From contig JAVDPC010000002.1 of NCBI GenBank assembly GCA_031296915.1, positions 290,460 through 354,459 on the forward strand: 64,000 nucleotides of DNA. The letters run 5' to 3'. The first letter of the stretch is position 1. Every line of letters starts with the position of its first letter. The translations under genes and the position numbers were made by a program. This DNA is from Cerasicoccus frondis. GTDB taxonomy: Bacteria > Verrucomicrobiota > Verrucomicrobiia > Opitutales > Cerasicoccaceae. The notes beneath the pieces are model-generated. The model was not told the DNA's origin. It saw only the letters and a list, made by a program, of their open reading frames with translations, and did no database searches. Of this stretch, positions 33,332-59,979 are shown piece after piece.

Positions 33332-33532
33332 ATGGCGCCGAACCGTCAGCTCAAGCAGTTGGCTGCAAACACCAAGCTTGAGACTGACCTTCCATACGAT
33401 AAATTGGAATAGCGCCTCATCGCTGATGGACAGGTGCTCCACTATGCAAGCGCGGACGCTAAAGAACCCGCAAGAGTTCTCCAGCTACAACAGGCCTTAA
33501 AGACAACTTAGATCATTCAGTACATGCGTTAG
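33332..33532 (+). pseudogene. 3'-terminal fragment of an FAD-dependent oxidoreductase gene
   Basis: The frame LKQLAANTKLETDLPYDKLE-stop-RLIADGQVLHYASADAKEPARVL matches the C-terminus of the intact protein ending at 59578 (LPYERLEQRLITDGQVLHYASEDAKEPARVL). A glutamine codon has become TAG and the original stop is lost. DNA similarity runs without gaps over 147 bp (33386-33532 against 59480-59626), including the flank ending AGTACATGCGTTA. Everything 5' of about 33340 is missing. Confidence 0.8.
33519..33532. promoter_or_regulatory. near-match LacI operator (AGTACATGCGTTAG)
   Basis: Right half ATGCGTTAG matches the CTAAC-N4-GTTAG consensus exactly; the left half has degenerated. It lies 47 bp before the start of the Verru_Chthon-like gene. 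Confidence 0.4.
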
Positions 33533-33578
33533 ATTGCACGTACTCGAATCTGGTGTATTTCCGCATCCTAATTATAGA

Positions 33579-36383
33579 ATGAAAAGAAATGCATCTGAGC
33601 AGTTCCTCGGTCATCAAAATGCCAACGGCAAACCTGCTTTCGCATTGGTGGTCGCACTTACTTTGATGAGCCTTTTTGTGCTGCTCGCGCTTAGCCTTTC
33701 ATCGCTGACTGCGGTCGAGCTGCGCACGTCATCAATTCAGCGAGACATGAATCACGCCCGGGAGAACGCACTCCTTGGCATGAAGACAGCGATCGCCCGC
33801 CTGCAAGAAACCCTTGGGCCGGACCAAAGGTTTACTGCGACGTCCGCGCTCATTGGCGAAAGCGATCAGCCTTACATCACCGGCGTTTGGAAGAAAGGCG
33901 CCACCGACGCGTTCACGTGGCTCGTCAGCGGAAACACCACCGCAAGCCCACTGGCCGTCTCCCCTTCAGCGCTACCCGATCCGGCAACTCAAGCTGACGG
34001 CGACGAAGTTTTCCTCGTCAATCTGGGTTCAGTATCCAGTGTCGAGCAGCGCATCAAAGTGGTGAAGGAAACGGTATCTCAAAGCAGTTCGCCCGGTCAC
34101 TACGCGTACTGGATCGGCGACGAAGGCGTCAAAGTCAGTGTAGGCATCAATGATGAAATTGATCAACTCGACTACGATAATTCGCGCCCGGAAAACATTC
34201 CCTACAACTCTCCGGGCGAAGGGCACGACTGGTCGGAACCAATACACCGCGACGAGCTACGTCAAATGACACAAAGCATCACCAATTTCTGGCAGCTACT
34301 CGGCCTCGAGCATGAAGATGTAGTCAACTCGTCAGACTTGGCCAATGTATCAACCTTGTCGTCTTCTTCTCTGCTACCCGGCAGCATCGATGCTGAAATT
34401 TGGAAAGATCATTTCCACACTTTAACGCCGCTCAGCCGGGCTGTTCATATCGACCACACCACGACAAACGGTTCATTAAAGAAAGACCTCTCAGACTCGC
34501 CGCAGCTTACTTCGTCATTCAAGCGCTTTTTGCGCAATCGCACGCAGGAACTCGATAGCGGCAACCGAGGCCACACGATCATCCCACACTCGGCGGCCAG
34601 CAGTGGTATTTTTCCGGCCTACTCGGTCGGGCCCGTCGTCACCGAGTTCGTGGTCCGGTATAATTTCTACCGTAATTACAATGGACGCCTTAACGTCCGA
34701 CAGGAGATGCAGGTGGAGCTATGGAACCCCTACGCCACGCCCATCCAGAGCACCTCCAAGGTATTGCTCAATCTAAGTGACTTGCCGGAAATGGAAGTCA
34801 CTGTCGGCGGGGAGTCTTATTCGGTCAATCTCGTCGACTACTTTGAGAGCGGCCCCTACGTGCCGCCCGGCATTGAGTGGGAGCCAGGCGAGATCAAGTG
34901 GCTAAAAGGCAGTGGTGGAAATCGCCAACTTGCTGTCGATGGCCCATCCCGCTCAGCGGAAATTCTCGATAGCTCTGGCTCTCCCATCGACATCCCCGAA
35001 CCAACGACGGCCGAACCACAAAGCATCCAGGTGAGCATTCCCGGACTAACAGGAGAAGCCGATGAACGGATTACGGTGTCGCTGGATACTCAGAACGACA
35101 CCATTGCAGAATACCGCCCAAACATAGCCTATCTGCAAGCCAATGTGAGCAATGCTTCACCAAGCCTCAGCAATAGTGGCTGGATGTTCGGCTACGCATT
35201 TGAAATGGATGATGACCTTGCTCGCTGGGTTGATGGTAGTCGCACGGACGCGGTGGACCCGCGGCGCAAAGACATGGACGTGGTGGATTTTGCGGATCCG
35301 GATTTCGAATACTGGTCTGACGATCCGGCCGATACTTTAGGCGCAATCAACTTGGCCGGCTCAGACACCTTTAATTCACAGCAGCGCTACATTCTGTTTG
35401 ATCTGCCGAGCCAAGAGCCCATATCGATTGGCGCGCTGACGCACCTCATCAGTGAGAAGCCACACATGCTGGGAAACACCTGGGGCGGCGCGGCGAATGA
35501 ATACTTTGATCAATACTTCATCTCGAGCCTGCCCCGTTGGCATGAGTGGAGCCTGGGCTCGCTGCCCATACTGCCAAACCGCTACATCGACTTCTACTTA
35601 TCAGGCGAATCGAACATTGAAATCGGCGACCCGTTTGCAGGTACAAGCGCCGATAGCGACTTCATATTTGATCTGCAACACGCGGCCAAATACCTCATGG
35701 TGCGTGGGGCGTTCAATGTGAACTCCGTTTCGACGGACGCCTGGAAATCAATGCTCGGCGGCATCAGCATATCCGGCTGGAAGCAAGAGAATGCCCAATC
35801 AAGCACAGACCTGCAACACGCATTCTTCAGGCATAGCTTTGGCGCTAAGCTGGTCCCGACGATGCCCAATGAAATCATCGAGTCGGCAACTGCCTACACC
35901 CGTAGTGGCGTCACCTTAACCACAGCGCAGGTCGATGCATTAGCAAATGCCGTAGTGACGATCATCCTTGATCGCGGGCGTCCCTACGAGAGCTTGAGCG
36001 AGTTCATCAATGCGGGGGTCATTGCTCAAGCGATTGAAGATGCTCAGATCAATCTCGAAGCCACGGAACTTGGCATCGCAAACAACTCACCGGCCATGCT
36101 CACCCAGGCCGATGTCATCAAAACCATCGCACCGATGCTAACCCCGCGCTCGGACACATTCCTAATCCGGAGCTACGGCGATGTGGTGGATCCATTCACC
36201 GGCGAAACCACGGCCCAAGTGTGGTGTGAGGCCGTTGTCCAACGAGTGCCAAGTTTGACCAGTCCTGCGACAGGTGTGCTCGCACCCGCTACGGACCCCC
36301 TGGCGCCGTCTCCTACGAAGTTCCCCTTTGGCAGAGAAATGAAGGTCCTCTCCTTCCGTTACTTAACCCCCGACGAAGTTTAG
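33579..36383 (+). CDS. Verru_Chthon cassette protein A-like surface/pilus-associated protein
   Basis: 934 residues from the ATG at 33579; a TTG at 33534 would overlap the operator-like site. It has a long basic leader followed by a pilin-like hydrophobic segment (GKPAFALVVALTLMSLFVLLALSLSSLTAVELRTSS). The sequence then reads MNHARENALLGMKTAIARLQETLGPDQR, as in Verru_Chthon cassette protein A (TIGR02600-type) and in type IV pilus assembly PilX-like proteins. The rest is a large extracellular part with helical and beta regions and a PYESLSEFINAG motif near the C-terminus. Family role is unknown; it is thought to join a pseudopilin-based envelope structure. The next gene starts 3 bp after its stop. 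It lies inside the sugar-regulon island. Confidence 0.8.
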   Translation: MKRNASEQFLGHQNANGKPAFALVVALTLMSLFVLLALSLSSLTAVELRTSSIQRDMNHARENALLGMKTAIARLQETLGPDQRFTATSALIGESDQPYITGVWKKGATDAFTWLVSGNTTASPLAVSPSALPDPATQADGDEVFLVNLGSVSSVEQRIKVVKETVSQSSSPGHYAYWIGDEGVKVSVGINDEIDQLDYDNSRPENIPYNSPGEGHDWSEPIHRDELRQMTQSITNFWQLLGLEHEDVVNSSDLANVSTLSSSSLLPGSIDAEIWKDHFHTLTPLSRAVHIDHTTTNGSLKKDLSDSPQLTSSFKRFLRNRTQELDSGNRGHTIIPHSAASSGIFPAYSVGPVVTEFVVRYNFYRNYNGRLNVRQEMQVELWNPYATPIQSTSKVLLNLSDLPEMEVTVGGESYSVNLVDYFESGPYVPPGIEWEPGEIKWLKGSGGNRQLAVDGPSRSAEILDSSGSPIDIPEPTTAEPQSIQVSIPGLTGEADERITVSLDTQNDTIAEYRPNIAYLQANVSNASPSLSNSGWMFGYAFEMDDDLARWVDGSRTDAVDPRRKDMDVVDFADPDFEYWSDDPADTLGAINLAGSDTFNSQQRYILFDLPSQEPISIGALTHLISEKPHMLGNTWGGAANEYFDQYFISSLPRWHEWSLGSLPILPNRYIDFYLSGESNIEIGDPFAGTSADSDFIFDLQHAAKYLMVRGAFNVNSVSTDAWKSMLGGISISGWKQENAQSSTDLQHAFFRHSFGAKLVPTMPNEIIESATAYTRSGVTLTTAQVDALANAVVTIILDRGRPYESLSEFINAGVIAQAIEDAQINLEATELGIANNSPAMLTQADVIKTIAPMLTPRSDTFLIRSYGDVVDPFTGETTAQVWCEAVVQRVPSLTSPATGVLAPATDPLAPSPTKFPFGREMKVLSFRYLTPDEV

Positions 36384-36386
36384 CGC

Positions 36387-37073
36387 ATGTCCAAGCATCT
36401 ATTCATCGCCTTAGGCCTCCTTCTCATTGCGACCCTTTCGCTCCATGCCCAACAGCGTCGATTTACTGTCGTTGCTCCTTATGGCGGCAAAGAGCTCAAG
36501 GAGCTTGGTTTCCTGGATGAAGATGGCGAATTCCAAAAGTTGAAATGGAGCCGCTCCCGACGCTCCCCCGAATACACTGCACCGCGCACGAATGATGTGC
36601 GTTTGGTGAAGCCGCACGTCAACGAGGAAGGCCGCACGGAGTATCTACCAGTGCTCGACCTTAACTGGCCGGGCAATACAAACCAGGCGCTGTTTGTGGT
36701 TGTTCAAGTCGATGGCGAAACACCTGCCCGGGTGATGGCAATCGATGACCGCGACGAAACATTTCCGCTCAACACCTTGAAAGTGCTCAATGGAATCGAC
36801 CAGACGATCTATGCGCTGGCCGGAGATAAGAAATTCCAACTCAACGCGGGCAAGCTATCCAAAGCATTCACCACCGAAAAGTATTTCCAAGTAGATGAAG
36901 ACGCACCCAATCCCGGCATGCCGATAGCGGTTGGCGTAAATGTCGACGGCCAGTATGACTTGCTTTATGCTGCCGGTGTTAGCGTGACGCCTCACAGCCG
37001 CGTGCTTTGCCTGGTGCTCCCGCCCAAGCAACAGGGCTCCACGCGCTATCAAGCACGCTTGCTCATACATTAA
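36387..37073 (+). CDS. secreted protein of unknown function, partner of the Verru_Chthon-like gene
   Basis: 228 residues, ATG at 36387, signal peptide MSKHLFIALGLLLIATLSLHAQ. It is a beta-rich sequence without catalytic motifs (RFTVVAPYGGKELKELGFLDEDGEF, LFVVVQVDGETPARVMAIDD, GVNVDGQYDLLYAAGVSVTPHSRVLCLVLPP). It starts 3 bp after the upstream stop, so it is in the same operon and probably works with it. I do not recognise a named family. Confidence 0.8.
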   Translation: MSKHLFIALGLLLIATLSLHAQQRRFTVVAPYGGKELKELGFLDEDGEFQKLKWSRSRRSPEYTAPRTNDVRLVKPHVNEEGRTEYLPVLDLNWPGNTNQALFVVVQVDGETPARVMAIDDRDETFPLNTLKVLNGIDQTIYALAGDKKFQLNAGKLSKAFTTEKYFQVDEDAPNPGMPIAVGVNVDGQYDLLYAAGVSVTPHSRVLCLVLPPKQQGSTRYQARLLIH

Positions 37074-37090: not shown

Positions 37091-38110
37091 TCACCGAACC
37101 GGGCGAAGCGTTGAGCCTTCGTTCCACTGCCCTTCCAGCAAGATATTCTTGGGGTCCGCAGGTATACCGCGTTCATCATGCTGAATGAGCTGGATCAACG
37201 TGTCCACTGCGGCAGCTCCAATTTGCTCAGACTTCTCAACCACCCCACTTAACTCCGGGTGCCTGAGCGGCGCCATCGGGCTTGCGATGCCAAGCTCTCC
37301 AGGGATATCCAAACCTAACTGCTGCACCACTGGCCACATCGGCGAAGTGATGATCACGGCGTCTGGTTTATGCTGTTTTTTCCATGCACTGAACTTAGTC
37401 GGAAAGTCTTCGTCTGTCAGTAGCTCAGGCAGAAATTCCAGACCATGGCTGCGACACCCACAGAGATAAGCAGACTGGCAATGTTCCAGCGTTTTTAAGT
37501 TCACTTCCTTGCTTCCCGCAAAGCCGATGCGCCGATAACCACGCTCTACCAGGCTATTAAAAATCGCCCGTGTCGCACGGATGTGAGACGGCGACACGCG
37601 GTGCATGATCGGCGTCCGAATCGTGTAACCAAAGGTAACGAGGCAATAGTCTTCGTAGGGTATATCGAAAACCTCCCCCTGCTTAGTCGGTGGACAGATA
37701 AAAATACCGCGGATGCCTCGCGCCTTTAAAATACTGTCCAATCGCTTAGCGCTGAGATTTTCCTGCAGCAGGTCGATTTTTTCGATATTGAACCCCAAAG
37801 CCTGCGCCCGCGCAAATGCTCCTTGGTAATATAGATTGTAGGTCGTGATCAGATGCCAGGGCCGCTCCTTGCTCGAATAGCTAATCCACGCTAAGGTCCC
37901 CTGATAATGCTGCGCCTCTTCATGGTTGCGGTATTTGGACAACGCCGAAAGCAGCGGATCCGGTCGATAACCCATCGACTCCGCAACCTCGCGCACATAG
38001 GCGCGCGTCTCCGGTGATACTGCCGGGCTCCCGTTCAGAGCCAGAGAAACAGTCGGGCGGCTAAGCCCTGCCTTTGCGGCAACATCTTTTTGTGTCGGTC
38101 GTCGGGGCAT
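37091..38110 (-). CDS. LacI-family regulator, first of two paralogues in the island
   Basis: 339 residues, ATG at 38110. The helix-turn-helix is TQKDVAAKAGLSRPTVSLALNG, followed by the hinge segment VAESMGYRPDPLLSALSKYR. The effector-binding domain runs from about residue 65 (YQGTLAWISYSS ... GYRRIGFAGS ... DAVIITSPMWPVV ... SEQIGAAAVDTLIQLI). Its DNA-binding part is almost the same as that of the LacI at 56778, so both should read the same operator. Two CTAAC-type palindromes (38198, 38278) lie in the divergent region shared with the symporter gene. Probably a repressor of this polysaccharide regulon, with autoregulation. The gene is convergent with the 36387 gene, with an 18-bp gap. Confidence 0.95.
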   Translation of the reverse strand: MPRRPTQKDVAAKAGLSRPTVSLALNGSPAVSPETRAYVREVAESMGYRPDPLLSALSKYRNHEEAQHYQGTLAWISYSSKERPWHLITTYNLYYQGAFARAQALGFNIEKIDLLQENLSAKRLDSILKARGIRGIFICPPTKQGEVFDIPYEDYCLVTFGYTIRTPIMHRVSPSHIRATRAIFNSLVERGYRRIGFAGSKEVNLKTLEHCQSAYLCGCRSHGLEFLPELLTDEDFPTKFSAWKKQHKPDAVIITSPMWPVVQQLGLDIPGELGIASPMAPLRHPELSGVVEKSEQIGAAAVDTLIQLIQHDERGIPADPKNILLEGQWNEGSTLRPVR

Positions 38111-38197: not shown

Positions 38198-38211
38198 CTA
38201 ACATGTGTTAG
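38198..38211. promoter_or_regulatory. LacI-type operator CTAACATGTGTTAG
   Basis: Perfect CTAAC/GTTAG arms; one extra flanking pair (G/C) extends the symmetry. Between the LacI gene at 37091 and the symporter at 38455. Confidence 0.75.
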
Positions 38212-38277: not shown

Positions 38278-38291
38278 CTAACATGTGTCAG
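38278..38291. promoter_or_regulatory. LacI-type operator CTAACATGTGTCAG
   Basis: One mismatch in the right arm (GTCAG for GTTAG); flanking TT/AA extends the symmetry. It is exactly 80 bp from the operator at 38198. Confidence 0.65.
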
Positions 38292-38454: not shown

Positions 38455-40212
38455 ATGTCGATTGAATACGCAACCATTTTAATCTACTTCATTTTTCTCG
38501 TCACCTTAGGCTACCTCGTCGCCAAAATGAATACCTCGGTCGACGATTATGTCCGCGGCGGTGCCAAGGGAACGTGGTGGATCGTGGGCTCAAGTATGTT
38601 CGTAGGCGGCATCAGTGCATTTACTTTTACGGGCAATGCATCGGCAGCGTTCAGCGCCGGTCCAACGTTTTTAGTCATCTACGCCGCCAATGTTATTGGC
38701 TTCCTGATCTGCATGATTCTTGGCCCTTGGTTCCGGCAAACGCGTGCGGAAACCTGGGCCGACGTGCTTCACGACAGATACGGCGTATCGGTGGAGCAGT
38801 TCTCAGCGATTCTGGGCGTTTGCCTCTCACCATTGGCAGCCGGCATTCAACTGTATGCACTGGCGGTGTTTGCTTCCTCAGCACTCGATCTCCCGGTTAC
38901 CTTGCTCATTTTTATTCTTGGTGGCATCGCCATCAGCTACTCCACCATGGGCGGGCGCTGGGGCGTCATGGCGACAGATTTTATTCAAGGCGTGCTGATG
39001 TTCGGGATGACACTCCTCGTGTTCTTCCTTTCGATTAAGGCCGTTGGTGGATGGGGTCAGTTTATCAACTACTTCAGTGATCCCCGCTTCGCCGAAGACT
39101 TCAAGTTCGTGAAAGCGCCCGGCGAATTCCATCAGGATAAATACAGCCTCAAGTGGATCATTGTCATCTTCTTCGTCCAGCTAAAGGGCTATATCAATCT
39201 CGGAACGGCTGGTCGTTTCTTGTCGGTCAAAGACGGTCCCTCCGCACGCAAGGCTGCGCTTCTGGCCGCAGTGTTGATGTTTGTGGGCAGCATCATCTGG
39301 TTCGTTCCTCCAATGGTCGCACGATTCCTGTTCGAAGCTGAGATTCAAGGCATGGACATCAAGGAACCGGCAACGGCAAGCTATTCCTACCTCGCTCAAC
39401 TGCTGTTGCCCAATGGCCTCATGGGTCTCATGTTGGCAGCCATGTTTGCCGCGACAATGAGTAGCCTGGACTCAAGCCTCAACGGCACGACAGGCGTCAT
39501 CGTAAAAAACATCATGCCTTGGGCTCGCAGCAAACTCGGCATGGGGGAAATGAGTTCAAAGCAGGGCGTGCGCTGGTGCCAATTTTTCACGGTCGGACTC
39601 GGTGCCGCGATTATCGCTGTCGCCTGCATCTTCTCGCGGCAAGAAAAGTTGGAGCTCTTCGACGCCTTTCTAATGATCGGCGCTGTAATCGGCGTCCCCC
39701 TTGGTTTACCCGTTTTACTCGGACTCTGGATCAAGCGCATATACTGGGGCAGCTATTTTGTGATCATCGCTGTCGCCCTGATTCCATCCATCTACTTCAC
39801 GTATGATTCAAGCGTCAACGATGCCAGCTGGTCCATACAGGATCGCATGATCTGGCTCTACATCTTTGGCGTCGCCGGCTTCTTAATCAGCCTTCCGATG
39901 TGGCGACTGGCCAAACAATCCGAGCGCTCAAGAATTGAAGCATTTTTTGAGCGCATGCATCGCCCAATCGACTTCGCAAAGGAAGTCGGCGAAGACAATG
40001 ATAGAGTTCAACTAAAGCTTCTAGGAGTATCATCTCTAGCAATGGCTGGCTTTGTTTTATTGCTATTATTTGTGCCCAACGATCTGACAGCCCGTCTTCA
40101 AATCCTAAGCCTGAGCTTGTTCATGGGTTCCATTGGCGGTCTGTTGATGGTCGCATATTATCGCAGAACGCCATCTCACCCCAATGTAAGAAACTGCTCC
40201 AATAAAGTGTGA
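38455..40212 (+). CDS. sodium/solute symporter (SSS family)
   Basis: 585 residues, ATG at 38455. Multi-helix membrane protein with family signatures: VDDYVRGG near 30, ISAFTFTGNASAAF near 60, GGRWGVMATDFIQG near 165 and MFAATMSSLDSSLNGTTGVI near 335. It is a close-type paralogue of the symporter at 22541. It imports a sugar or sugar acid with sodium across the inner membrane. Placed directly under two LacI-type operators, it is probably the uptake system for the final products of this regulon. It ends with a positively charged cytoplasmic tail. Confidence 0.95.
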   Translation: MSIEYATILIYFIFLVTLGYLVAKMNTSVDDYVRGGAKGTWWIVGSSMFVGGISAFTFTGNASAAFSAGPTFLVIYAANVIGFLICMILGPWFRQTRAETWADVLHDRYGVSVEQFSAILGVCLSPLAAGIQLYALAVFASSALDLPVTLLIFILGGIAISYSTMGGRWGVMATDFIQGVLMFGMTLLVFFLSIKAVGGWGQFINYFSDPRFAEDFKFVKAPGEFHQDKYSLKWIIVIFFVQLKGYINLGTAGRFLSVKDGPSARKAALLAAVLMFVGSIIWFVPPMVARFLFEAEIQGMDIKEPATASYSYLAQLLLPNGLMGLMLAAMFAATMSSLDSSLNGTTGVIVKNIMPWARSKLGMGEMSSKQGVRWCQFFTVGLGAAIIAVACIFSRQEKLELFDAFLMIGAVIGVPLGLPVLLGLWIKRIYWGSYFVIIAVALIPSIYFTYDSSVNDASWSIQDRMIWLYIFGVAGFLISLPMWRLAKQSERSRIEAFFERMHRPIDFAKEVGEDNDRVQLKLLGVSSLAMAGFVLLLLFVPNDLTARLQILSLSLFMGSIGGLLMVAYYRRTPSHPNVRNCSNKV

Positions 40213-40697: not shown

Positions 40698-40711
40698 CTA
40701 ACTTGTGTAGG
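40698..40711. promoter_or_regulatory. degenerate LacI-type operator (CTAACTTGTGTAGG)
   Basis: The left arm is exact and the right arm GTAGG is imperfect. It is placed 64 bp before the glycosidase ATG, the position expected for the regulon. Confidence 0.3.
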
Positions 40712-40774: not shown

Positions 40775-42328
40775 ATGCTCAAGCCATCCCCTGAAATCTG
40801 TTCCCCATGGCGCGAGGTCGAGCTGATCTTTGCCGCTGTAAAGCACTATACGCAGCCTTACTTGGAAGTCGACGCCTACGTGGTTTTTACCCACGCGCCC
40901 AGCGGGCAAGTTTTACGGCGTCCTGCGTTTTGGGATGGAGGTTCTAGATGGCGCGTGCGATTCGCGTCACCAGAGAGCGAGGGGATTTGGTCATGGGAAT
41001 CATTTGCGTACGTCGATGATGTCGGCCTGGTTGGCCAACGAGGCAAGCTCGCGGCGCAGGCTACAGCAAGCAATAGCCTATTCGAACAACACGGGTTTTG
41101 GCGTATGTCTCCCGGCAAGCGTAACCTAGTTCACGCTGACGGCAAACCAGCGTTACTCTGCGGAGATACTGCTTGGGCGTTGCCTTGGCGCGCGACGATT
41201 GAGCAAGCGGAGGTTTACGCGAATGACCGTCAACGTAAGGGTTATAACGCCGCGCTGCTAATGGTGGTTCAGCCAGACATGAACGCCGAGGGCCCTGATT
41301 CCCGTATGGAGGATTACGGCTTTGCTCGTGGTTTTGATGATCTCTGCTCCGGACATCTAAACGAGCTACGCCCAGACTTTTTCCAATACTTCGATCGCTT
41401 AGTCGATGTGCTGCTGGACCATGAAATTGTGCCGGTCTACCAGCCCGTATTCCACGGATATGGTTGGAAGGGCAAACAAGTTGCCGGGCAAGTGGTTTCC
41501 GGCGAGGAATATGTGCGCTTTTGCCGATACATTGTAGCGCGTTATGGCGCGCGTCCGGCGATTTACCTCGTGGGAGCCGACGACTATGGCTTGCTTGATT
41601 CAGTGCGTGCCGGCGGCGAGATGGTTCATGCCTCAGATTGCTACGACCAACCTACTGGCGTACATTACAACCCAATGGCGCTAAACCGCAGTTGGCAGGC
41701 ATGTGACTGGCTAGACTTTCAATGGTGTCAGACCGGGCACGGCGAGGAGCATTTGCCCGAACGCGTGATGGACATGTGGCATCAGCAGCCGGTCAAAGCA
41801 GTGTGCAATGCCGAGCCCACCTACGAGCGAATGGGCGGCTACAAGGCTGAGGGCTGGTGGCAGGGGCACGAGGCTTGGAGCAACCTTTGCGCGGGCGGCA
41901 CGATGGGGGTTGTCTATGGCGCCGCCTCGCTCTGGCAATGGCGCCTCCACAAGGACGAGCCGGGACACGAGAGTTGGTGCGCGGACCCAGATGCTGGCTG
42001 GGAAAAAGCGTTGAACTTCGAGGGCTCGAATTATCCGGGCGTTGTACGACGCATTCTCGAGCAATATGACTTCACTGACATGCACCCGGATTGGCGGTCT
42101 ATCACCGGTAAGCGCGGCTTGGCGGCAGGTAATCGTTTCCTGCTGGTGTACTCAGAGCATGATGGCGATATCTTTACGGGGTCTCTAGGCGATGCGCCGG
42201 ATGGCTACCGTGTTTACTGTGCGCGGACCGGCGAAGTATTGTCCGCAGGGAAGCGTACTAGCTGTAGCAGTATTGCTGTGGAAAAAGGTCGTCCGGCGGT
42301 GATTGTTTTCAGCGATGAACTTGCCTGA
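40775..42328 (+). CDS. DUF5060/DUF4038 glycoside hydrolase (apiosidase-like, GH140-type)
   Basis: 517 residues, ATG at 40775. An N-terminal beta domain (about 1-95; PSGQVLRRPAFWDGGSRWRVRFASPESEGIWSW pattern) matches DUF5060. A TIM-barrel domain follows (VHADGKPALLCGDTAWALPWRA ... ERQRKGYNAALLMV-like stretch ... FFQYFDRLVDVLLDHEIVPV ... YGARPAIYLVGADDYG). The motif AVCNAEPTYERMG and a C-terminal YRVYCARTGEVL strand complete the DUF4038/apiosidase-like pattern. Candidate catalytic acids are the D in VGADDYG and the E in NAEPTYE. No signal peptide is visible, so it probably acts in the cytoplasm on imported oligosaccharides. Members of this group attack side chains of pectin-like polymers. Confidence 0.9.
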   Translation: MLKPSPEICSPWREVELIFAAVKHYTQPYLEVDAYVVFTHAPSGQVLRRPAFWDGGSRWRVRFASPESEGIWSWESFAYVDDVGLVGQRGKLAAQATASNSLFEQHGFWRMSPGKRNLVHADGKPALLCGDTAWALPWRATIEQAEVYANDRQRKGYNAALLMVVQPDMNAEGPDSRMEDYGFARGFDDLCSGHLNELRPDFFQYFDRLVDVLLDHEIVPVYQPVFHGYGWKGKQVAGQVVSGEEYVRFCRYIVARYGARPAIYLVGADDYGLLDSVRAGGEMVHASDCYDQPTGVHYNPMALNRSWQACDWLDFQWCQTGHGEEHLPERVMDMWHQQPVKAVCNAEPTYERMGGYKAEGWWQGHEAWSNLCAGGTMGVVYGAASLWQWRLHKDEPGHESWCADPDAGWEKALNFEGSNYPGVVRRILEQYDFTDMHPDWRSITGKRGLAAGNRFLLVYSEHDGDIFTGSLGDAPDGYRVYCARTGEVLSAGKRTSCSSIAVEKGRPAVIVFSDELA

Positions 42329-42698
42329 CAACGGAGTAAAAAACAGCCAGCCGTAAATCTCTCAGTTGACGGGAACTAAACCGGCCGGCTCGGCCACAAT
42401 TGCTCTTTTGCCAGAAATCAAAAGCTAAAGAGATTGCAGCCAGTTTAGATAAAACTTTGGGACTGCGAGCCCTAACAAGCGTTAGAAGTGGTGACATTGC
42501 TCAAGGCGTTCATTTTGAAAGTATGTATGCACTGCACTTACCCTTACATTCTCAATTTAATGCCAGATTGCCATACTATCAGCGTGTGCTTTTTACCAGT
42601 TGGAAGACTCAATCATATTGATTTTCCCAAAGCACAACAGCAGGCACGAGAATAGAAATCAAAACGGCTCTTAACTCCCTGAAATAGCAAATAGCACC
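42329..42698. other. 370-bp control region before a PEP-CTERM gene
   Basis: No gene. The only structured element seen is the operator at 42472. Confidence 0.5.
42472..42485. promoter_or_regulatory. LacI-type operator CTAACAAGCGTTAG
   Basis: Perfect CTAAC-N4-GTTAG palindrome upstream of the PEP-CTERM gene at 42699 (214 bp). Confidence 0.7.
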
Positions 42699-44743: not shown

Positions 44744-44757
44744 CTAACCCATGTTAG
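44744..44757. promoter_or_regulatory. LacI-type operator CTAACCCATGTTAG
   Basis: Perfect CTAAC-N4-GTTAG palindrome 68 bp upstream of the pseudopilin ATG. Confidence 0.7.
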
Positions 44758-50834: not shown

Positions 50835-50848
50835 CTAACGCAGGTTAG
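50835..50848. promoter_or_regulatory. LacI-type operator CTAACGCAGGTTAG
   Basis: Perfect arms; upstream of the beta-helix/LamG gene starting at 50706. Confidence 0.7.
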
Positions 50849-51946: not shown

Positions 51947-53776
51947 TTACTTGCCGCTCAGTTTGATTTTCCGGGAGCCAAAGACTGCCACTAAGCCAAC
52001 CAACACAATCAGACCACCGAAGTATATGAAGACTGAATCCCCACCCTCGCTGTCCTCATTCTTGGAGTTCGCTGATTCCGCGATCGTAAGCGTTGGTTCA
52101 ACGTCTGGCGCGGAGTCCATAGTGGGTGTCGCAACGTTTTTGCTGCGTAGCTTCAGGTCAGCTTGAACGGCGACTTTACCTTGATTCAGGCGTAACTTCA
52201 GCTGTTCCTCATATAGCGACTGCGGATAAAGCCTCTCCCACTCGCCAGAGCCTTCTACATAATCCCAGGGCAGGGTGCCTTGGTACTGTGCCTCAAGCCA
52301 ATCGAGCCTGGGTTTATCAAGGTCCACTTTGGTATATGTGCGCAGCGAGTCGGACAGGCCAATTAAATAGCCCCATCCATATTGCGCAGAGCGAATTTCG
52401 CCATCGCCGCTACAGTTCCAATAAACAGATTCAGTAACCGTGTGCCCAGCACCGCCACTTTTTTCCCCGCGGTTCATGCCATGCCAGCCATCGTTTATCA
52501 CACAGGAGTCCACCAGGTTGGCGATCGCAAGAGAGTGATGAAAATCGGATGGGCCCAAGTTATTATTAAAGTCGCTCAGCGAACCTCCGGTCGATTCGCA
52601 TCGGAGGTAAACGTTGCCCACGTTACCGAACAACCAGCTTGCAGTGTAATTGTGGCGACCGCCAATCCCCTTACAATCAACCGTCAACACATCATTGCCG
52701 CCCTCCACGACATAGAGGTAACCATGCCCTCCGCCATCCCTTCGCTGAGCATAGTAAAATCCGCAGTCTTGAAGCGTGATGCGCTTGCAACGAATCACTA
52801 CGATCCCTTTGTCATAGACTTGATACTTCGCATCATAGCCCTCTCCGATGGGCAACATCGACTCCACGTTTCGAGTCCAACAATTCTTTGCATCGATAAA
52901 CCGGATCAGCTCACGCCGGACATCTTGTGACAACGTCTCCACCACCCCCTCACGCATCGCATTAGTAATAGAAAGGTCCTCAACGCCACATTCCTCCAGC
53001 AGATGCGTTCGCCTTTTGATAGACGCCATATCACGCACCTTGATTGGATACCGCACTGGAGTATCCAGAGTCACCTTATGTGGCTCGCTGGATGTGTCCA
53101 CGGCTTCGACATTGGCCTGAAAGAACGTCATCCACTTGCCGTTATGCGGCTTCCATACCCCGGTCATGCCATGCTCTTCAATGAACTCATCCGATATGAT
53201 CCATCCCACATCAACGTCATCGCCAACCTTTAGGTCACTCGCGTTCTCCACCCAGACATCCTTGCTCAAACGTGGGGTATCTTTGACCAGCAGCTTACTT
53301 ACATCCGTTTTGTTTTCGCCAGCGAATCGAATCGCCGTCACCCTTTTCTCTGCTTCATCAACAAACTGCAACCGGGTCTTCCCCACACCATTACCACGTA
53401 TAACGACGCCATCGCGATTTACATTCAAGCCACTGCTAAAATAGTAATGCCCCTCGGGCAAATAGACCACACCGCCTCCCGCTGCCTCTGCCGCATCAAT
53501 GGTCGCCTGAACGCTGACCGTTGAATCCTCTACACCTGTATTATCAGCGCCAAACTGCTCCACAGCATTAAAGACCGGGCCCTTAATTGTTGGTATTGGC
53601 TTTTCCCCACTATGATAGCCGGCATAAGAAAAATCGTGCAGAAAGCGCCCTTCCTCATCCGACAACCCGGGAGTCCAGTTCTCTGGAAAAAGATGACTAC
53701 GCCAAACACCACTTTGCGCATTCAAGCCCGCGTGAAGCAGCGCCAAGATCAGGGTAAAAAAGTATGACTTAAACAT
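51947..53776 (-). CDS. Pectate_lyase_3 protein with a C-terminal membrane helix
   Basis: 609 residues, ATG at 53776, signal peptide SYFFTLILALLHAGLNAQ. The beta-helix signature starts near residue 65: VEQFGADNTGVEDSTVSVQATIDAAEAAGGGVVYLPEGHYYFSSGL and VVIRGNGVGKTRLQFV. Central repeats include CGVEDLSITNA and CWTRNVESM. The last 30 residues are an acidic linker (NSKNEDSEGGDS), a helix VFIYFGGLIVLVGLVAVF and basic GSRKIKLSGK. This is a tripartite tail that could be a sorting or anchoring signal without a PEP motif. It probably attacks the regulon's uronic-acid polymer at the cell surface. Third gene of the operon, 11 bp after the deacetylase stop. Confidence 0.9.
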   Translation of the reverse strand: MFKSYFFTLILALLHAGLNAQSGVWRSHLFPENWTPGLSDEEGRFLHDFSYAGYHSGEKPIPTIKGPVFNAVEQFGADNTGVEDSTVSVQATIDAAEAAGGGVVYLPEGHYYFSSGLNVNRDGVVIRGNGVGKTRLQFVDEAEKRVTAIRFAGENKTDVSKLLVKDTPRLSKDVWVENASDLKVGDDVDVGWIISDEFIEEHGMTGVWKPHNGKWMTFFQANVEAVDTSSEPHKVTLDTPVRYPIKVRDMASIKRRTHLLEECGVEDLSITNAMREGVVETLSQDVRRELIRFIDAKNCWTRNVESMLPIGEGYDAKYQVYDKGIVVIRCKRITLQDCGFYYAQRRDGGGHGYLYVVEGGNDVLTVDCKGIGGRHNYTASWLFGNVGNVYLRCESTGGSLSDFNNNLGPSDFHHSLAIANLVDSCVINDGWHGMNRGEKSGGAGHTVTESVYWNCSGDGEIRSAQYGWGYLIGLSDSLRTYTKVDLDKPRLDWLEAQYQGTLPWDYVEGSGEWERLYPQSLYEEQLKLRLNQGKVAVQADLKLRSKNVATPTMDSAPDVEPTLTIAESANSKNEDSEGGDSVFIYFGGLIVLVGLVAVFGSRKIKLSGK

Positions 53777-53787: not shown

Positions 53788-54557
53788 CTAAGCTTCTGGT
53801 GAAAAATCCCGTGGCAGCGCGAACGTTGCACCCTGTTCACGCAGGTAGGAAACAATTTTGATAAATTCGGCAAACTCACTTTCATCCCACATTCCTGGAT
53901 GGCCCTGCAGGACCAAGGGAGACTTCGGCGGATTGCTTTCGTAGCTTTTTTTGAAGACCTCGAAATCTACGTGGCCGACTTTAGGCTCGAGATTCACTTT
54001 GTAGTCGCGTTTCAAGCTCTTAGCGCCTTGTACTGATTTACCCGAACCATACAGCCAGACGTTCAGTTCAGGAAATTGGCCCAGCGCAATTCGCGTGTCG
54101 TCATCCACTGCATTGAATGGCGCGCCGAAGGTGGAAAATGTCACCCAAGTTTTTCGCGCCCTAATCGTTGCGAGTCGCCAATGTGCTTCAGTTGATGCTC
54201 AAGTCCACTGTTGGAGAACTCGGACACCTTAGCATCGCCATCCATCCAACGTTTATGATCGTAACCGTGATTCCACAATTCAATAAGGTCGCTACTGCTC
54301 CAAGCCGTTAGCGTTTGAAAGTAGGCTGGCTGGTCCCCCTCCAGCGAATCACAGATAATGCCCATCGAGACAGGCACCTGCTCCTCAATCGCAAAATCAT
54401 AAAGGCGCTGCCAGCGCTCTGGCACATCACCATGCCTCGCGCACACATCATCCATTTTGAACACAACGACCGTCACTGGTGTTGGTTCAACCGCGAGAAT
54501 ACTGATTGGCAAAAGGCTCAACAACAAGCCTGGGAGAATTCGAAAAAGCCTGGGCAT
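53788..54557 (-). pseudogene. polysaccharide deacetylase-like protein, split by a one-base frameshift
   Basis: Two overlapping frames encode one protein. The first, from ATG 54557 (MPRLFRILPGLLLSLLPISIL, a signal peptide), reads VTVVVFKMDDVCARHGDVP and LIELWNHGYDHKRW, with the Asp-Asp and the H-x3-4-H-type metal ligands of NodB/DUF2334-like deacetylases. It ends REKLG-stop at 54141. The second frame overlaps by four bases and continues VTFSTFGAPFNAVDDDTRIAL ... LVLQGHPGMWDESEFAEF, the expected C-terminal half with its HPGMWD motif. A run of three G where four are needed (about 54145) explains the break. Removal of acetyl groups from the substrate is the inferred role. It could be decayed, or an error in the sequence. 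Confidence 0.8.
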
Positions 54558-54622
54558 TACAATGATATCGGGTATGCCATTCATCCGATTACAGAAGCAC
54601 GGTTTTGACAATTGGGCCTACG

Positions 54623-54636
54623 CTAACAGATGTTAG
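54623..54636. promoter_or_regulatory. LacI-type operator CTAACAGATGTTAG
   Basis: Perfect arms; 66 bp before the deacetylase ATG, so it would control the four-gene operon 54557-51119. Confidence 0.75.
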
Positions 54637-54762: not shown

Positions 54763-55602
54763 TTATCTATACCGACGACGCATCAATGCCCCACCCAAAA
54801 CTACAGCGCCGAGCAATAAAGCATACACGCTTGGTTCTGGCACAGTTATTCCAACTACCTCAAAGGTTTCAATACCCATACCGAATGGAGTCGTCGCAGC
54901 GCTTCCTGCAAAACTGTCCCTTTCCACATAAAATCCAGCGCCCGTCACATTCTCCAGAGCCAATGCCCCAAAGCTGGAATTTTGATCGAAGTTGAGGCTG
55001 GTGAATGGATCGTAGGCAGCCCAGGTCTCAGTGGATAGCGCTGCAGCGTCCAACACCAAGGACGTCGTCCCGGAAACGTTCATAGTGCTGTTCGATACAT
55101 AGAAGCTACCACCGACTTCCACCAAGAAGCGTCCCGTTCCAGCTCCGAATGAATTGCTGGACATCGAAAGTCCCTCTATGAGGTTGGCCCCACTCTGGTA
55201 GCCGGGCAAAAAGTCTTCCTGCTTGAATAAGAAGGCAGCGTGCAAAGACAACGTACTCCCATCCCATCCGGTTGGACTATAAGTTTGCAGGTATATCCGA
55301 TCTAAAGGATCAGAATTGCGGATTTGTTGTCGCGAGAATTGGCCATCCACAGTCGAACTGCTGAATTGATATCCGCCATAAAATACTGGACCGGTGTAGT
55401 TCGATGAAGGACTTAACACTTCATCCAGATCATAGTTCAAGGTGTAGGTATACGGGCCGGATCCACTACTGGTGGCAGATCGGGAAAAACTAACGACAGA
55501 GTCTGATATATAGTCGCCACCATAGCTCAATAAGGTGTCAGCTGACAAAGGTATGGAGATAGCGAGCCATAAGGCTCCAAGGAGAGGAAGTTTACTATTC
55601 AT
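54763..55602 (-). CDS. PEP-CTERM sorted extracellular protein
   Basis: 279 residues, ATG at 55602, signal peptide LLGALWLAISIPLSAD. It is a paralogue of the protein at 51119 with the same YGGYQF, SLHAAFLFKQEDF and GRFLVEVGGSFYVSN blocks. It adds the complete sorting signal at its end: VPEPSVYAL, helix LLGAVVLGGALM and RRRYR. Exosortase processing and a surface location are expected. No enzyme motif. It is a single-gene unit with its own operator (55684) and a strong terminator. The two paralogues probably serve the same ligand in different places. Confidence 0.92.
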   Translation of the reverse strand: MNSKLPLLGALWLAISIPLSADTLLSYGGDYISDSVVSFSRSATSSGSGPYTYTLNYDLDEVLSPSSNYTGPVFYGGYQFSSSTVDGQFSRQQIRNSDPLDRIYLQTYSPTGWDGSTLSLHAAFLFKQEDFLPGYQSGANLIEGLSMSSNSFGAGTGRFLVEVGGSFYVSNSTMNVSGTTSLVLDAAALSTETWAAYDPFTSLNFDQNSSFGALALENVTGAGFYVERDSFAGSAATTPFGMGIETFEVVGITVPEPSVYALLLGAVVLGGALMRRRYR

Positions 55603-55683: not shown

Positions 55684-55697
55684 CTAACGCATGTTAG
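55684..55697. promoter_or_regulatory. LacI-type operator CTAACGCATGTTAG
   Basis: Perfect arms, 82 bp before the PEP-CTERM ATG at 55602. Confidence 0.75.
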
Positions 55698-55755: not shown

Positions 55756-55769
55756 CTTACAAGCGTTAG
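55756..55769. promoter_or_regulatory. near-match LacI operator CTTACAAGCGTTAG
   Basis: One mismatch in the left arm; 48 bp before the plus-strand PEP-CTERM gene at 55818. Confidence 0.55.
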
Positions 55770-55817: not shown

Positions 55818-56702
55818 ATGAAAACAATAGCATATACCCTACCCATCACCCTTCTTGCATTCTCTAATCTAGTGGCCCAGACGAGTTGGACCAACGCTGG
55901 CGGCGATTCACTTATCAGCAACTCAAGCAACTGGGACAACGGACTCCCCAGTCTGTCGAGCCTTGGCACAATTGATAATGGCGACACGGTTGAAATGACT
56001 GAGCGCCAACAATTGGACAACAAGGACTACCTCGTGACCAATGGCTCAACCATCCATGTCGACAGCGGCATCAACGGCGTAAGATGGGACGGCGGCAGCA
56101 TCACCCTCACCGGAGGTAATCTGGACAGCGACTACACCAGCCTGTTCACCATCGGGCGTGACTCTGATGCGAACCCAACAACCTTGAACATCAACGACGG
56201 CTCCACGGCAACATTCGCCGGTGCGCTGATTGTCGGACGCCTTTCACAAGGCTTTGTCAATCAGTCTGGCAATAGCACAGTAACCATTGACGGCACGCTT
56301 CGCCTACAAGAAAACTCCAACACAGTCGTTTCGGGCAACATCTATAATCTGTCCGGTGGTTCGGTTACCGCAACGGATCTCGACGTGCGCGACCGTAATC
56401 TGGACAACTCCAACTACTTCAACTTTACCAGTGGAAGTACAGGGCAACTAACCATCGTAGGAGCCAGCATCTTCGATTTCGATGCCTACATCACCGATGG
56501 ACGCATCCGCCTGAACGACAATCCAAACAGCGACACCGGCGATTTCTCAGTCAGCTCAGAAGTCATCGGTCCCGATACGTTCACGACGCTGAGCCTGACC
56601 ACTGTGCCTGAGCCAAGCTCCTACGCGTTGATGGCTGGCGCCGCGATTTCCGGAATCATTCTCTTGCGACGCCAGCGCGGCCTGAGCGGACAGATTAAAT
56701 GA
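55818..56702 (+). CDS. PEP-CTERM protein with autotransporter-like beta-helix repeats
   Basis: 294 residues from the ATG at 55818; the longer frame from TTG 55803 is less likely. The signal peptide is MKTIAYTLPITLLAFSNLVAQ. The start of the mature protein, SWTNAGGDSLISNSSNWDNGLPS, is the common opening of Verrucomicrobial beta-helix proteins. It is followed by short repeats around 'LNINDGSTATFAGALIVGR', 'VTIDGTLRL' and 'YNLSGGSVTATDLDV'. It ends with the sorting signal VPEPSSYAL, a helix and RRQRG. Surface display is expected; no catalytic motif is present. It is controlled by the near-match operator at 55756 and followed by a weak terminator. Confidence 0.9.
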   Translation: MKTIAYTLPITLLAFSNLVAQTSWTNAGGDSLISNSSNWDNGLPSLSSLGTIDNGDTVEMTERQQLDNKDYLVTNGSTIHVDSGINGVRWDGGSITLTGGNLDSDYTSLFTIGRDSDANPTTLNINDGSTATFAGALIVGRLSQGFVNQSGNSTVTIDGTLRLQENSNTVVSGNIYNLSGGSVTATDLDVRDRNLDNSNYFNFTSGSTGQLTIVGASIFDFDAYITDGRIRLNDNPNSDTGDFSVSSEVIGPDTFTTLSLTTVPEPSSYALMAGAAISGIILLRRQRGLSGQIK

Positions 56703-56764: not shown

Positions 56765-56777
56765 AATTTTGTTTTAC

Positions 56778-57872: not shown

Positions 57873-57886
57873 CTAACATGCGTTAG
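57873..57886. promoter_or_regulatory. LacI-type operator CTAACATGCGTTAG
   Basis: Perfect arms, between the divergent LacI (57806) and FAD oxidoreductase (57953) genes. Confidence 0.75.
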
Positions 57887-57952: not shown

Positions 57953-59578
57953 ATGCACCCTATTGAGAATTTCGACATAGCAATCTACGGCGGAACATCC
58001 TCCGCTATCATCGCCGCCGTTCAGGCAAAAATACAACAGAAGACCGTCGTCATAATCAGTCCGGACCGCCACTTAGGCGGGCTGAGCAGCGGAGGCCTCG
58101 GCTATTCCGACACGGGCGAAAAGCATGTCATTGGTGGGCTGTCCCGCGAGTTCTATCACCGGATCTGGCAGCATTATCAGTCCGATGACGCCTGGACCTG
58201 GGAGCGCAAGGAAGATTACGGAAACGTTGGCCAATGCATTCCGGCGATCGATTCAGAGATGAAAACCATGTGGATTTTCGAGCCACATGTAGCCGAGAGA
58301 GTATTTGAAGACTTCATTGCCGAATACGGCATACCGGTTTATCGCGAAGAATTTCTCGATCGCCAATCGGGCGTCACCAAAGAAAACAACCGCATTGTTT
58401 CCATCACCACGCTTTCTGGAAAAACCATCGCCGCCAAAATGTTTATCGACGCCACTTATGAGGGCGACCTGATGGCGAGCGCCGGAGTCTCCTACGCCAT
58501 TGGTCGCGAGTCATGCGCTACCTATGGTGAAGAATGGAATGGCATTCAAACTGGCGTCCTGCACCACAACCACCACTTTGGCGTCATCGATCAAGGCGTC
58601 AGCCCCTACCGCACACCGGGCGATCCCGAGAGCGGACTACTTCCCTACATCAGCCCTGAGCCGCCGGGAGCATTCGGAGATGCAGACCATCGCGTTCAAG
58701 CCTACTGCTATCGCATGTGCTTCAGCAAGCATCCGGATAATCGCGTGCCATTCCCCAAGCCGCCAAATTACAATCCGGATGACTACGCCCTGCTGACCCG
58801 CATCTTTGAGTCTGGCTGGCGCAGCGTTTTCAACAAGTTTGACCCAATCCCCAATTTAAAAACCGACACCAACAATCATGGCCCGATGAGCTCAGATTTC
58901 ATCGGCGGTAACTACGGCTACCCCGATGGCAGTTACACCCAGCGCGAGGAGATCATCGAAGCTCATAAACACTACCAACAGGGCTTGCTCTACTTCCTGT
59001 CCAATGCGCCGCAAACGCCCGCAGAAATTCGTGGGGAAATGCAATGCTACGGACTCGCCGCCGATGAGTTTACTGACAACGACCACTGGCCACATCAACT
59101 ATACATTCGCGAAGCCCGCCGCATGGTTGGTGAATACGTCCTAACTGAGAACGAATTACTGAAACGCAGACCAACACCGAATTCTGTCGGCATGGGTTCC
59201 TACCCGCTTGATTCTCATAACACACAACGTTACATCGCTCCAGAAGGCTACGTGCAAAACGAGGGCGACATCGGCGTCAAGATGAATGGCCCCTACGCCA
59301 TTCCTTATGGCTCGCTGACACCACGAAAGGAGCAATGCGAGAATCTAATCGTACCGGTTTGCGTTTCCAGTTCGCACATTGCATTCGGTTCCATTCGCAT
59401 GGAGCCGGTTTTCATGATCCTTGGCCAATCGGCAGCCACCGCCGCCGCACTAGCCATCGAGCAGCAATGCGCGCTGCAAGACCTTCCCTACGAAAGGTTG
59501 GAACAGCGACTCATTACTGATGGTCAGGTGCTCCACTATGCAAGCGAGGACGCTAAAGAACCCGCAAGAGTTCTCTAG
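57953..59578 (+). CDS. FAD-dependent oxidoreductase (FAD_oxidored family)
   Basis: 541 residues, ATG at 57953. The dinucleotide-binding start is IENFDIAIYGGTSSAIIAAVQAKIQ with the GGxxSA loop, followed by VVIISPDRHLGGLSSGGLGYSDTG, the hallmark of FAD_oxidored proteins. Further family blocks are KMFIDATYEGDLMASAGVSY, the cysteine-containing RMCFSKHP, NYGYPDGSY, and IRMEPVFMILGQSAATAAALAIEQ near the end. No signal peptide. Such proteins are common in Verrucomicrobial and Planctomycete sugar loci; the reaction is not established, perhaps oxidation of a sugar unit. Its last 33 codons and flank are duplicated at 33386, so a second copy once existed. Confidence 0.92.
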   Translation: MHPIENFDIAIYGGTSSAIIAAVQAKIQQKTVVIISPDRHLGGLSSGGLGYSDTGEKHVIGGLSREFYHRIWQHYQSDDAWTWERKEDYGNVGQCIPAIDSEMKTMWIFEPHVAERVFEDFIAEYGIPVYREEFLDRQSGVTKENNRIVSITTLSGKTIAAKMFIDATYEGDLMASAGVSYAIGRESCATYGEEWNGIQTGVLHHNHHFGVIDQGVSPYRTPGDPESGLLPYISPEPPGAFGDADHRVQAYCYRMCFSKHPDNRVPFPKPPNYNPDDYALLTRIFESGWRSVFNKFDPIPNLKTDTNNHGPMSSDFIGGNYGYPDGSYTQREEIIEAHKHYQQGLLYFLSNAPQTPAEIRGEMQCYGLAADEFTDNDHWPHQLYIREARRMVGEYVLTENELLKRRPTPNSVGMGSYPLDSHNTQRYIAPEGYVQNEGDIGVKMNGPYAIPYGSLTPRKEQCENLIVPVCVSSSHIAFGSIRMEPVFMILGQSAATAAALAIEQQCALQDLPYERLEQRLITDGQVLHYASEDAKEPARVL

Positions 59579-59979
59579 CAACAATAGGCCCCAAAGGCGG
59601 CTTAGTTCATGCAGTACATGCGTTATACAACCCAACATTAGCGCGAATTTCGCGCCATTCGGGTCAAATGTAGATTTCAAACATTGACCAGTATCCATGC
59701 AACGCCATGCCATTGCCCATACCGCACGATTGATTTTATTGCCCCCAATCGCGGCGATATCTGTATCCATTTCGTTCATCGGTCTTGGTTCGCTCTCCGA
59801 ACCTTCCCTAGAGCCGTAAATTAAATGTTCAAAAATATACTACGCCATCCCCCACAAACTTGAGCGAGGGGCCATCTAGGGTAGATGGCATGTCTCGTAG
59901 GGAAACAGGGGCAAAAGCTACCTTATGTGTGATGCACATCCCACTCTGCTTTAGGCCAAACCCTTACCTTGTTGTGGTT

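What the first reader, a model, noticed from the sequence alone, without database searches (positions are those of the whole stretch)
33519..59626. A single LacI operator motif, CTAAC-N4-GTTAG, marks a 25-kb polysaccharide regulon
Seen directly: eight perfect copies (38198, 42472, 44744, 47820, 50835, 54623, 55684, 57873) and near matches at 38278, 44958, 55756, 33519 and 40698. Almost all lie in the gaps directly upstream of the transcription units. Two LacI paralogues in the region share almost the same recognition helix. The favoured centre is A/G-rich then YATG-like (ACAT, ATGT, GCAT, ATGC). Established: LacI-family proteins bind such palindromes as dimers. Inference: both regulators control all these genes, including pseudopilin, PEP-CTERM and Verru_Chthon-like genes.
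Basis: partly seen in the sequence, partly recalled or inferred. Interest (0 to 1): 0.75.

Follow-up and report, generated by a model that had tools for sequence, protein, structure and literature searches.

The report
Sugar-repressor regulon with shared operator
A Verrucomicrobiota bacterium appears to switch a polysaccharide-eating gene cluster, together with pilin-like and cell-surface genes, through one repeated DNA site read by two closely related sugar repressors, and this branch of repressors seems to do without the central CG step that most surveyed relatives use.

Summary
CTAAC-N4-GTTAG occurs exactly 9 times in the 5.8-Mb genome; 8 lie within 19.7 kb of the window, in gaps between genes. 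One other genome of 384 searched in the class, from another family, has close LacI relatives; it carries much of the gene set, three LacI genes and the same motif in the gaps. Of 47 LacI-type helices in the genome only these two read S-R-P-T-V-S-L. Blind palindrome searches in 106 stretches around LacI genes gave recurrent palindromes in 19: residue 22 = Leu/Met goes with T at half-site position 6 (12 of 12), Arg with G (4 of 6). This ties the motif to the LacI genes without proving binding. Best reading: a local, autoregulated LacI repressor regulon with paralogous repressors on one operator. What departs from the textbook: no CpG at the palindrome centre (1 of 61 sites where hinge residue 53 is Leu/Val), against 1173 of 1251 even-palindrome regulators in a survey of seven other phyla (PMC4052901). 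New variant of a known kind.

The parts
38198..38211 (.). operator, exact; 88 bp before lacI-A start, in the lacI-A/SSF divergent gap
38278..38291 (.). operator, one mismatch; 164 bp before SSF start
42472..42485 (.). operator, exact; 214 bp before a PEP-CTERM gene
44744..44757 (.). operator, exact; 68 bp before the pilin-like gene if it starts at 44676
   Evidence: distance by hand
44958..44971 (.). operator, one mismatch; 103 bp before the beta-helix gene 45074
   Evidence: distance by hand
47820..47833 (.). operator, exact; 91 bp before the 2-hydroxyacid dehydrogenase gene
50835..50848 (.). operator, exact; 129 bp before the LamG/beta-helix gene
54623..54636 (.). operator, exact; 39 bp before the deacetylase / beta-helix / secreted-protein run of genes
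55684..55697 (.). operator, exact; 82 bp before PEP-CTERM gene 54763-55602
55756..55769 (.). operator, one mismatch; 49 bp before PEP-CTERM gene 55818-56702
57873..57886. operator, exact; between lacI-B (67 bp) and the FAD oxidoreductase gene (67 bp, by hand)
40698..40711 (.). possible operator, two mismatches, before the apiosidase-like gene
   Evidence: not enriched as a class
33519..33532 (.). possible degenerate operator, three mismatches, before the 934-aa prepilin-like gene
   Evidence: exact site before the G100 orthologue
37091..38110 (-). LacI-A (P0001)
   Evidence: PF00356 and PF13377
56778..57806 (-). LacI-B (P0002), 63% identical to LacI-A
33579..36383 (+). 934-aa protein with prepilin-like N-terminus (read by eye), no family hit; 56% identical in G100
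36387..37073 (+). protein with signal-like N-terminus (by eye), no family; 57% identical in G100
38455..40212 (+). sodium:solute symporter; 62% identical in G100
40775..42328 (+). apiosidase-like (DUF4038 type) with DUF5060; no hit among the G100 ORFs compared
42699..43484 (+). PEP-CTERM protein; no hit among the G100 ORFs compared
43948..44676 (-). type II/IV pilin-like protein; 57% identical in G100
45074..46612 (+). beta-helix enzyme, weak partial hyaluronan-lyase-like match
46722..47729 (-). D-2-hydroxyacid dehydrogenase family; no hit among the G100 ORFs compared
47848..50706 (-). beta-helix protein with LamG-type domains; 59% identical in G100
51119..51925 (-). protein whose best G100 match is that of 54763-55602; no PEP-CTERM hit
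51947..53776 (-). beta-helix enzyme; 58% identical in G100
53788..54611 (-). deacetylase-like gene read in two frames (weak DUF2334 match in the first piece, below cut-off)
54763..55602 (-). PEP-CTERM protein
55818..56702 (+). PEP-CTERM protein; 51% identical in G100
57953..59578 (+). FAD-dependent oxidoreductase; 73% identical in G100

Best explanation
CTAAC-N4-GTTAG is the operator of a local LacI-family regulon. Dimers of LacI-A and/or LacI-B, which have the same recognition helix, sit on sites in front of the transcription units of a polysaccharide-use island (12 of 14 units by my grouping have an exact or one-mismatch site, the other two a weak one), their own genes included. Most likely they repress, and a sugar released from the polymer, bound by the periplasmic-binding-protein-like domain, lifts repression (inferred from the family). 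Half-site letters are read by LacI positions 17, 18 and 22 (here Arg, Pro, Leu); the hinge helix, with Leu56 kept, inserts at a TG/CA step and not at the usual CpG, which would fit the replacement of the usual hinge alanine (position 53) by leucine. Shown: sites, their concentration, recurrence in a second genome, association of LacI residues with operator letters. Inferred: binding, repression, ligand, hinge insertion, sharing of sites by both paralogues.
For: 8 of 9 exact sites of the genome in 19.7 kb (binomial 1.6e-19 for that stretch, chosen after the fact, 1.5e-18 for the finding's own span). 11 of 11 exact/one-mismatch sites in gaps. A site in front of each lacI gene. LacI relatives at E<=1e-80 in 2 of 384 genomes of the class, own one included; the second, G100, of another family, has 14 of the 18 region proteins that I compared at 41-73% identity, three LacI with SRPTVS(L/M) and 6 of its 33 exact/one-mismatch sites in the 27 kb of that cluster (3.5e-8), while the one upstream gap that I aligned hardly aligns. 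In 53 other relatives the motif occurs 0-2 times exactly. Only LacI-A and -B of 47 LacI helices have S-R-P-T-V-S-L. Residue 22 Leu/Met with T6 in 12 of 12 stretches, Arg with G6 in 4 of 6 (Fisher 0.0007 and 0.005; without L156 0.001 and 0.006, without L156 and G100 0.0014 and 0.008). Two pairs of LacIs 33% and 35% identical with matching residues 17 and 18 share TTTAC and TTCTA half-sites.
Against: No binding or expression data. Arg22 fails twice: L180 has T6 and L185 A6. L185 holds a QSR LacI like L160 but a different palindrome (it also holds a second LacI, so the owner is unclear). Outside the tally, an Arg22 LacI in G047 sits beside an exact CTAAC-N4-GTTAG palindrome (L056; its hinge has Ala53 and the centre is CpG). 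The batch with a written prediction gave 3 hits of 20, all Leu/Met, so the Arg half was not retested. 87 of 106 stretches gave no recurrent palindrome. The L156 operator is its second-ranked palindrome, taken up after I saw that it fits. L198 has Ala53 yet no CpG centre. In G100 no site with two or fewer mismatches precedes the FAD gene, and four region proteins (apiosidase-like, one PEP-CTERM, 2-hydroxyacid dehydrogenase, beta-helix 45074) have no orthologue among the ORFs compared. Promoter-like sites are no more common than chance (18 found, 19.1 expected), so placement relative to promoters is unknown. Conservation rests on one second genome.
Confidence: 0.87

Rival explanations
1. The sites are bound by another regulator coded in the island or elsewhere, and the two LacI genes are bystanders.
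For: No binding data. The genome has 47 LacI-type matches, and a third LacI lies at 30540-31568.
Against: The two genomes in which this LacI type was found among 384 both have the motif clustered around it, while 53 other relatives have 0-2 exact copies; the third LacI has Tyr17-Thr18-Arg22; sites precede both lacI genes; residue-to-letter association.
Confidence: 0.07
2. The two paralogues divide the sites: one takes some operators, the other the rest, by the N4 centre or flanks.
For: Centres vary (TG 4, CA 4, AG 2, GA 1 of 11 sites, listed); the DNA-binding parts differ at 12 of 61 positions.
Against: Residues 14-25, which hold the recognition helix, are identical, and the hinge stretch PDPxLSALSKYR differs at one position.
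Confidence: 0.25
3. The repeats are RNA hairpins or terminators in the gaps, not protein sites.
For: Two exact copies elsewhere, L051 in G041 and L101 in G100, are the core of longer inverted repeats with a GAAA/TTTC centre.
Against: In the window the flanks printed do not extend the pairing consistently, centres vary, and sites lie before starts.
Confidence: 0.03
4. LacI-A and -B activate, or repress some units and activate others as Cra does (recalled), from these sites.
For: Two sites lie 164 and 214 bp before the start.
Against: Most LacI-family members repress (recalled); the other nine sites lie 39-129 bp from starts (and by hand).
Confidence: 0.1

Closest known systems
LacI-family local regulons (survey: Ravcheev et al. 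2014, PMC4052901; abstract and passages seen)
   Same: Even palindrome, sites mostly 30-140 bp before starts, frequent autoregulation, sugar-use genes.
   Different: Central pair CG in 1173 of 1251 even-palindrome regulators there (49 different, 29 degenerate); here TG/CA mostly. Its seven phyla, as listed, do not include Verrucomicrobiota.
LacI recognition code of the TVSR group (Camas et al. 2010, PMC2978694; abstract and passages seen)
   Same: Half-site positions 5/4 linked to residues 17/18 and position 6 to residue 22 (LacI numbering); Arg22 with G6.
   Different: That code covers Arg22 proteins; 'TVSL' and 'TVSM' do not occur in its text. Here Leu/Met22 with T6. It calls exceptions to the hinge/central-CG link rare.
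Cra/FruR of enterobacteria (recalled, not tested)
   Same: Arg17 and a non-Arg residue 22; half-site beginning CT.
   Different: Global regulator; here a local island.
Alginate gene clusters of Verruconatronum alginivorum (PMC13274419; start of abstract and three passages seen)
   Same: Verrucomicrobiota; a pseudopilin among the 17 genes over-expressed on alginate against sucrose; some genes traced to Cerasicoccaceae.
   Different: Alginate lyases; 'LacI' does not occur in its text.

Membership tests
LacI/GalR transcription factors | LacI helix-turn-helix and periplasmic-binding-like sensor domain | tested here: met
   PF00356 and PF13377 above cut-off in both proteins
LacI/GalR transcription factors | Hinge leucine (LacI Leu56) | tested here: met
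LacI/GalR transcription factors | Hinge alanine (LacI Ala53); typical, not required | tested here: not met
   Leu in both; own genome L 18, V 10, I 2, A 11 of 45 aligned
LacI/GalR transcription factors | Even palindromic operator | tested here: met
LacI/GalR transcription factors | Central CpG in the operator; typical, with published exceptions | tested here: not met
   0 of 11 window sites, 1 of 6 in G100 (centres listed)
LacI/GalR transcription factors | Dimer binding to the operator | not testable with these tools
   needs a binding assay
Bacteroidota-type polysaccharide utilisation locus | SusC/SusD pair | tested here: not met
   no such Pfam hit in the 20 proteins given; the transporter is an SSF symporter
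Verru_Chthon cassette | Cassette proteins above NCBIfam cut-off | tested here: not met
   TIGR02596 26 bits of 70 for the pilin; none for the 934-aa protein (10 proteins given)
Pectin / rhamnogalacturonan degradation | Enzymes of defined pectin activity | tested here: inconclusive
   partial RHGA-type matches, apiosidase-like domain

The most novel reading that the evidence does not exclude
A large branch of LacI repressors in Opitutia (Verrucomicrobiota), with Leu or Val at hinge position 53 and often Leu or Met at helix position 22, reads operators by a shifted code (T at position 6) and without a central CpG; in the window this code drives a two-paralogue regulon joining polysaccharide enzymes to a dedicated pilin-like and PEP-CTERM surface set. 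In the window, G100, L221 and L230 a flexible pyrimidine-purine step takes the CpG's place; over all 13 stretches it is 34 of 61 sites, with none in four of them.
Probability: 0.5. Interest if true: 0.6.

Novelty: new variant of a known kind. Interest (0 to 1): 0.5.

Why it matters
It gives a first readable operator code for LacI proteins in a lineage that the survey read here does not cover (PMC4052901), in a genome with 47 LacI-type matches. That would let one assign regulons, and so substrates, to uncharacterised polysaccharide islands from sequence. It also tests a structural rule (hinge alanine plus central CpG) with natural exceptions, and it places pilin-like and PEP-CTERM genes of unknown role under the same switch as polysaccharide enzymes.

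Tried and rejected
The ninth exact site (C18) was followed: it lies between genes that I read by eye as mlaD-like and rsmE-like and recurs with the same letters in three same-genus genomes whose best match to LacI-B is 34-39% identical, so it is probably another element; no tRNA there. Exact sites in other relatives: 14 loci given, 13 printed; one (L056) has a LacI beside it, one (L051) is a hairpin core, three are the C18-type site. A first genome-contig scan with two LacIs found no relative; the second, with five, found G100's contig and Cerasicoccus arenae at 39%. A structure prediction was not run, since it would not show DNA choice. Promoter scan at chance level. Literature: 0 papers for Verrucomicrobia + LacI + operator + polysaccharide utilization, Verru_Chthon and Verrucomicrobiota + LacI + transcription factor binding. 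Searches gave listings (58, 59 and 77 cut short) in which no title or abstract start describes this code or regulon; that is no proof of absence.

Choices and dropped rows. The 60 stretches outside the own genome, window and G100 were chosen by me from the capped list (best matches to LacI-B), so they lean to Leu53 proteins. The LacI model found no LacI gene in 5 of the 106 stretches (L165, L193, L197; L239, L253), though most were taken for one. Of 16 stretches with a palindrome, L222 (tandem array) was dropped; for L156 the top hit (tandem array) was dropped and the second used; L230 was used at its second-ranked spacing (same sites). L185 was left out of the position-53 tally because its two LacI differ there. 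Searches missed 44744 and 44958 in the window because of ORF calling. The tally 1 of 61 leaves out L156 (0 of 4, sites). In the batch, the helices of five stretches had been seen, among them two of the three hits (L251, L258); their palindromes had not.

Full report
The sequence observation is right. Eight exact CTAAC-N4-GTTAG copies lie at the stated places, with three one-mismatch copies. The whole genome (5,805,120 bases, 69 contigs) has nine exact copies, eight of them in 38198-57886 of the window; the same pattern read backwards has six. With one mismatch there are 38 more, three in the region. Of the 35 elsewhere, 26 fall inside mechanical ORFs and 9 outside, whereas 11 of 11 regional sites are in gaps that make up 13% of the stretch by my gene list. 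The two outer near matches, 40698 and 33519, have two and three mismatches and are weak by themselves.

The region holds two LacI-family genes, 63% identical, each with the LacI helix domain and the periplasmic-binding-like sensor. Both read LSRPTVSLAL in the recognition helix. Among the 47 LacI-type matches, no other has S-R-P-T-V-S-L. The DNA-binding part (residues 1-61) is 49 of 61 identical and the rest 164 of 278, so sensing has drifted more than DNA reading. A site stands in front of each lacI gene (88 and 67 bp). Ten of the eleven sites lie 39-164 bp before a start and one 214 bp (44744 and 44958 by hand).

A second genome gives the main comparative support. Of 384 genomes of the class, only G000 and G100 have such a LacI at E<=1e-80. 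G100 belongs to another family of the order; its contig is PBYS01000084.1, titled a Puniceicoccaceae MAG. I took 40,000 of its 54,770 bases and compared 20 window proteins with 26 of the 29 ORFs listed. Of the 18 proteins of the region (the deacetylase counted as two pieces), 14 match at 41-73%: the 934-aa protein, its neighbour, both LacI (49-56% to each of three), the symporter, the pilin, two beta-helix proteins, both deacetylase pieces, two PEP-CTERM proteins, a related protein and the FAD oxidoreductase; the apiosidase-like enzyme, one PEP-CTERM protein and the 2-hydroxyacid dehydrogenase have no match and the beta-helix protein 45074 only 25-26% ones. Six of G100's 33 exact or one-mismatch sites lie in the 27 kb of this cluster. 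Of the 12 sites with up to two mismatches there, 10 lie between genes and 2 inside. The one upstream gap that I aligned hardly aligns, so the sites seem to have outlived their surroundings. The FAD gene of G100 has no such site.

To ask whether the LacI genes are the readers, I searched blindly for recurrent even palindromes in the gaps of stretches around LacI genes: 86 (16 with a hit; 0 of 172 shuffles) and 20 more (3 with a hit; 0 of 100 shuffles). The window gave the highest score. Taking the palindrome axis as the dimer axis, the consensus letter at half-site position 6 is T wherever residue 22 is Leu or Met (12 of 12: window, G100, L156, L159, L178, L198, L221, L230, L231, L251, L252, L258) and G in 4 of 6 with Arg (L158, L160, L174, L189; not L180, L185). 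The window and G100 are one regulon and not independent, and L156 was added after I saw it; without both the Fisher values are 0.0014 and 0.008. I wrote the expectation down before the last batch; its three hits, all Leu/Met, agreed, but no Arg case appeared. Two pairs of LacIs only 33% and 35% identical but with the same residues 17 and 18 share their half-sites, TTTAC (G000 and G030, different families) and TTCTA (G000 and G002, same genus). Against this, L160 and L185 both hold a Q-S-R LacI but have different palindromes; L185 has a second LacI. Camas et al. (PMC2978694, passages) link Arg at this residue with G6 and limit their code to Arg proteins; 'TVSL' and 'TVSM' do not occur in the text.

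The centre is the unusual part. Published LacI operators have a CG pair in the centre for 1173 of 1251 regulators with even palindromes (PMC4052901, passages; seven phyla, Verrucomicrobiota not among those listed), and the hinge alanine and leucine are tied to it (PMC2978694). Here the 11 window centres are TG 4, CA 4, AG 2, GA 1, and the six of G100 are TG 3, CA, TA, CG. In 13 stretches whose LacI has Leu or Val at hinge position 53, 1 of 61 sites has CpG, and L156 adds 0 of 4 (sites). With Ala53 it is 6 of 14: L180 5 of 5, L189 1 of 3, L198 0 of 6, so the link with residue 53 is suggestive only. A pyrimidine-purine step fills the centre in 14 of 17 window and G100 sites but in 34 of 61 over the 13 stretches, with none in L159, L174, L178 and L252, so a flexible step is not the rule everywhere. 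In this genome Leu or Val at 53 is commonest (28 of 45 aligned).

Function. The cluster looks like a polysaccharide-use island: SSF symporter, three beta-helix proteins, an apiosidase-like enzyme, a 2-hydroxyacid dehydrogenase and an FAD oxidoreductase. The substrate is open; pectin is one candidate, other uronate-rich polymers another (inference). Co-control of a pilin-like gene has a precedent: in Verruconatronum alginivorum a pseudopilin is over-expressed on alginate (PMC13274419, passages). Repression lifted by a sugar is inferred from the family. The window's genome shares a genus with G002, whose contig 5 has the length of a Cerasicoccus arenae record, so it is probably a Cerasicoccus-like bacterium (Verrucomicrobiota, Opitutia, Puniceicoccales).

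Verdict: a real, tight, local LacI regulon, of a known kind, with a new operator and a probable departure, shared by related LacI proteins, from the central CpG.

Noticed in passing
53788-54611 (-): A deacetylase-like gene is read in two overlapping frames here, while its G100 relative is one open frame; frameshift in the organism or in the assembly.
   Followed up: partly
30540-31568 (-): A third LacI (Y17-T18-R22, Leu53) divergent from a gene whose protein ends in a PEP-CTERM-like tail by eye; no recurrent palindrome found in the stretch around it (L177).
   Followed up: partly
G000 C18:101278; L046-L048: CTAACACCAGTTAG between mlaD-like and rsmE-like genes (named by eye), same letters in the four genomes of the genus that were searched; function unknown.
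   Followed up: partly
L051 and L101, about position 1501: A longer inverted repeat around CTAAC-TTTC/GAAA-GTTAG next to a gene that looks carB-like by eye, in G041 and G100.
   Followed up: no
L056, position 1501: In G047 a perfect long palindrome with the CTAAC-N4-GTTAG core and a CpG centre lies just before a LacI with R17-W18-R22 and an Ala53 hinge.
   Followed up: no
L198, L158, L221: Further strong local palindromes around other LacI genes: TTGGA-N4-TCCAA (5 exact), CGCAA-N4-TTGCG (5 exact), TTCTA-N4-TAGAA (4 exact).
   Followed up: partly
2172-12506 (-): A 3444-codon open frame, not examined.
   Followed up: no
60624-62285 (+): Eco57I-type DNA methyltransferase next to the island.
   Followed up: no
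L104, position 1501: In G100 a one-mismatch site with centre ATGC lies about 140 bases inside another pilin-like ORF (1359-1997).
   Followed up: no
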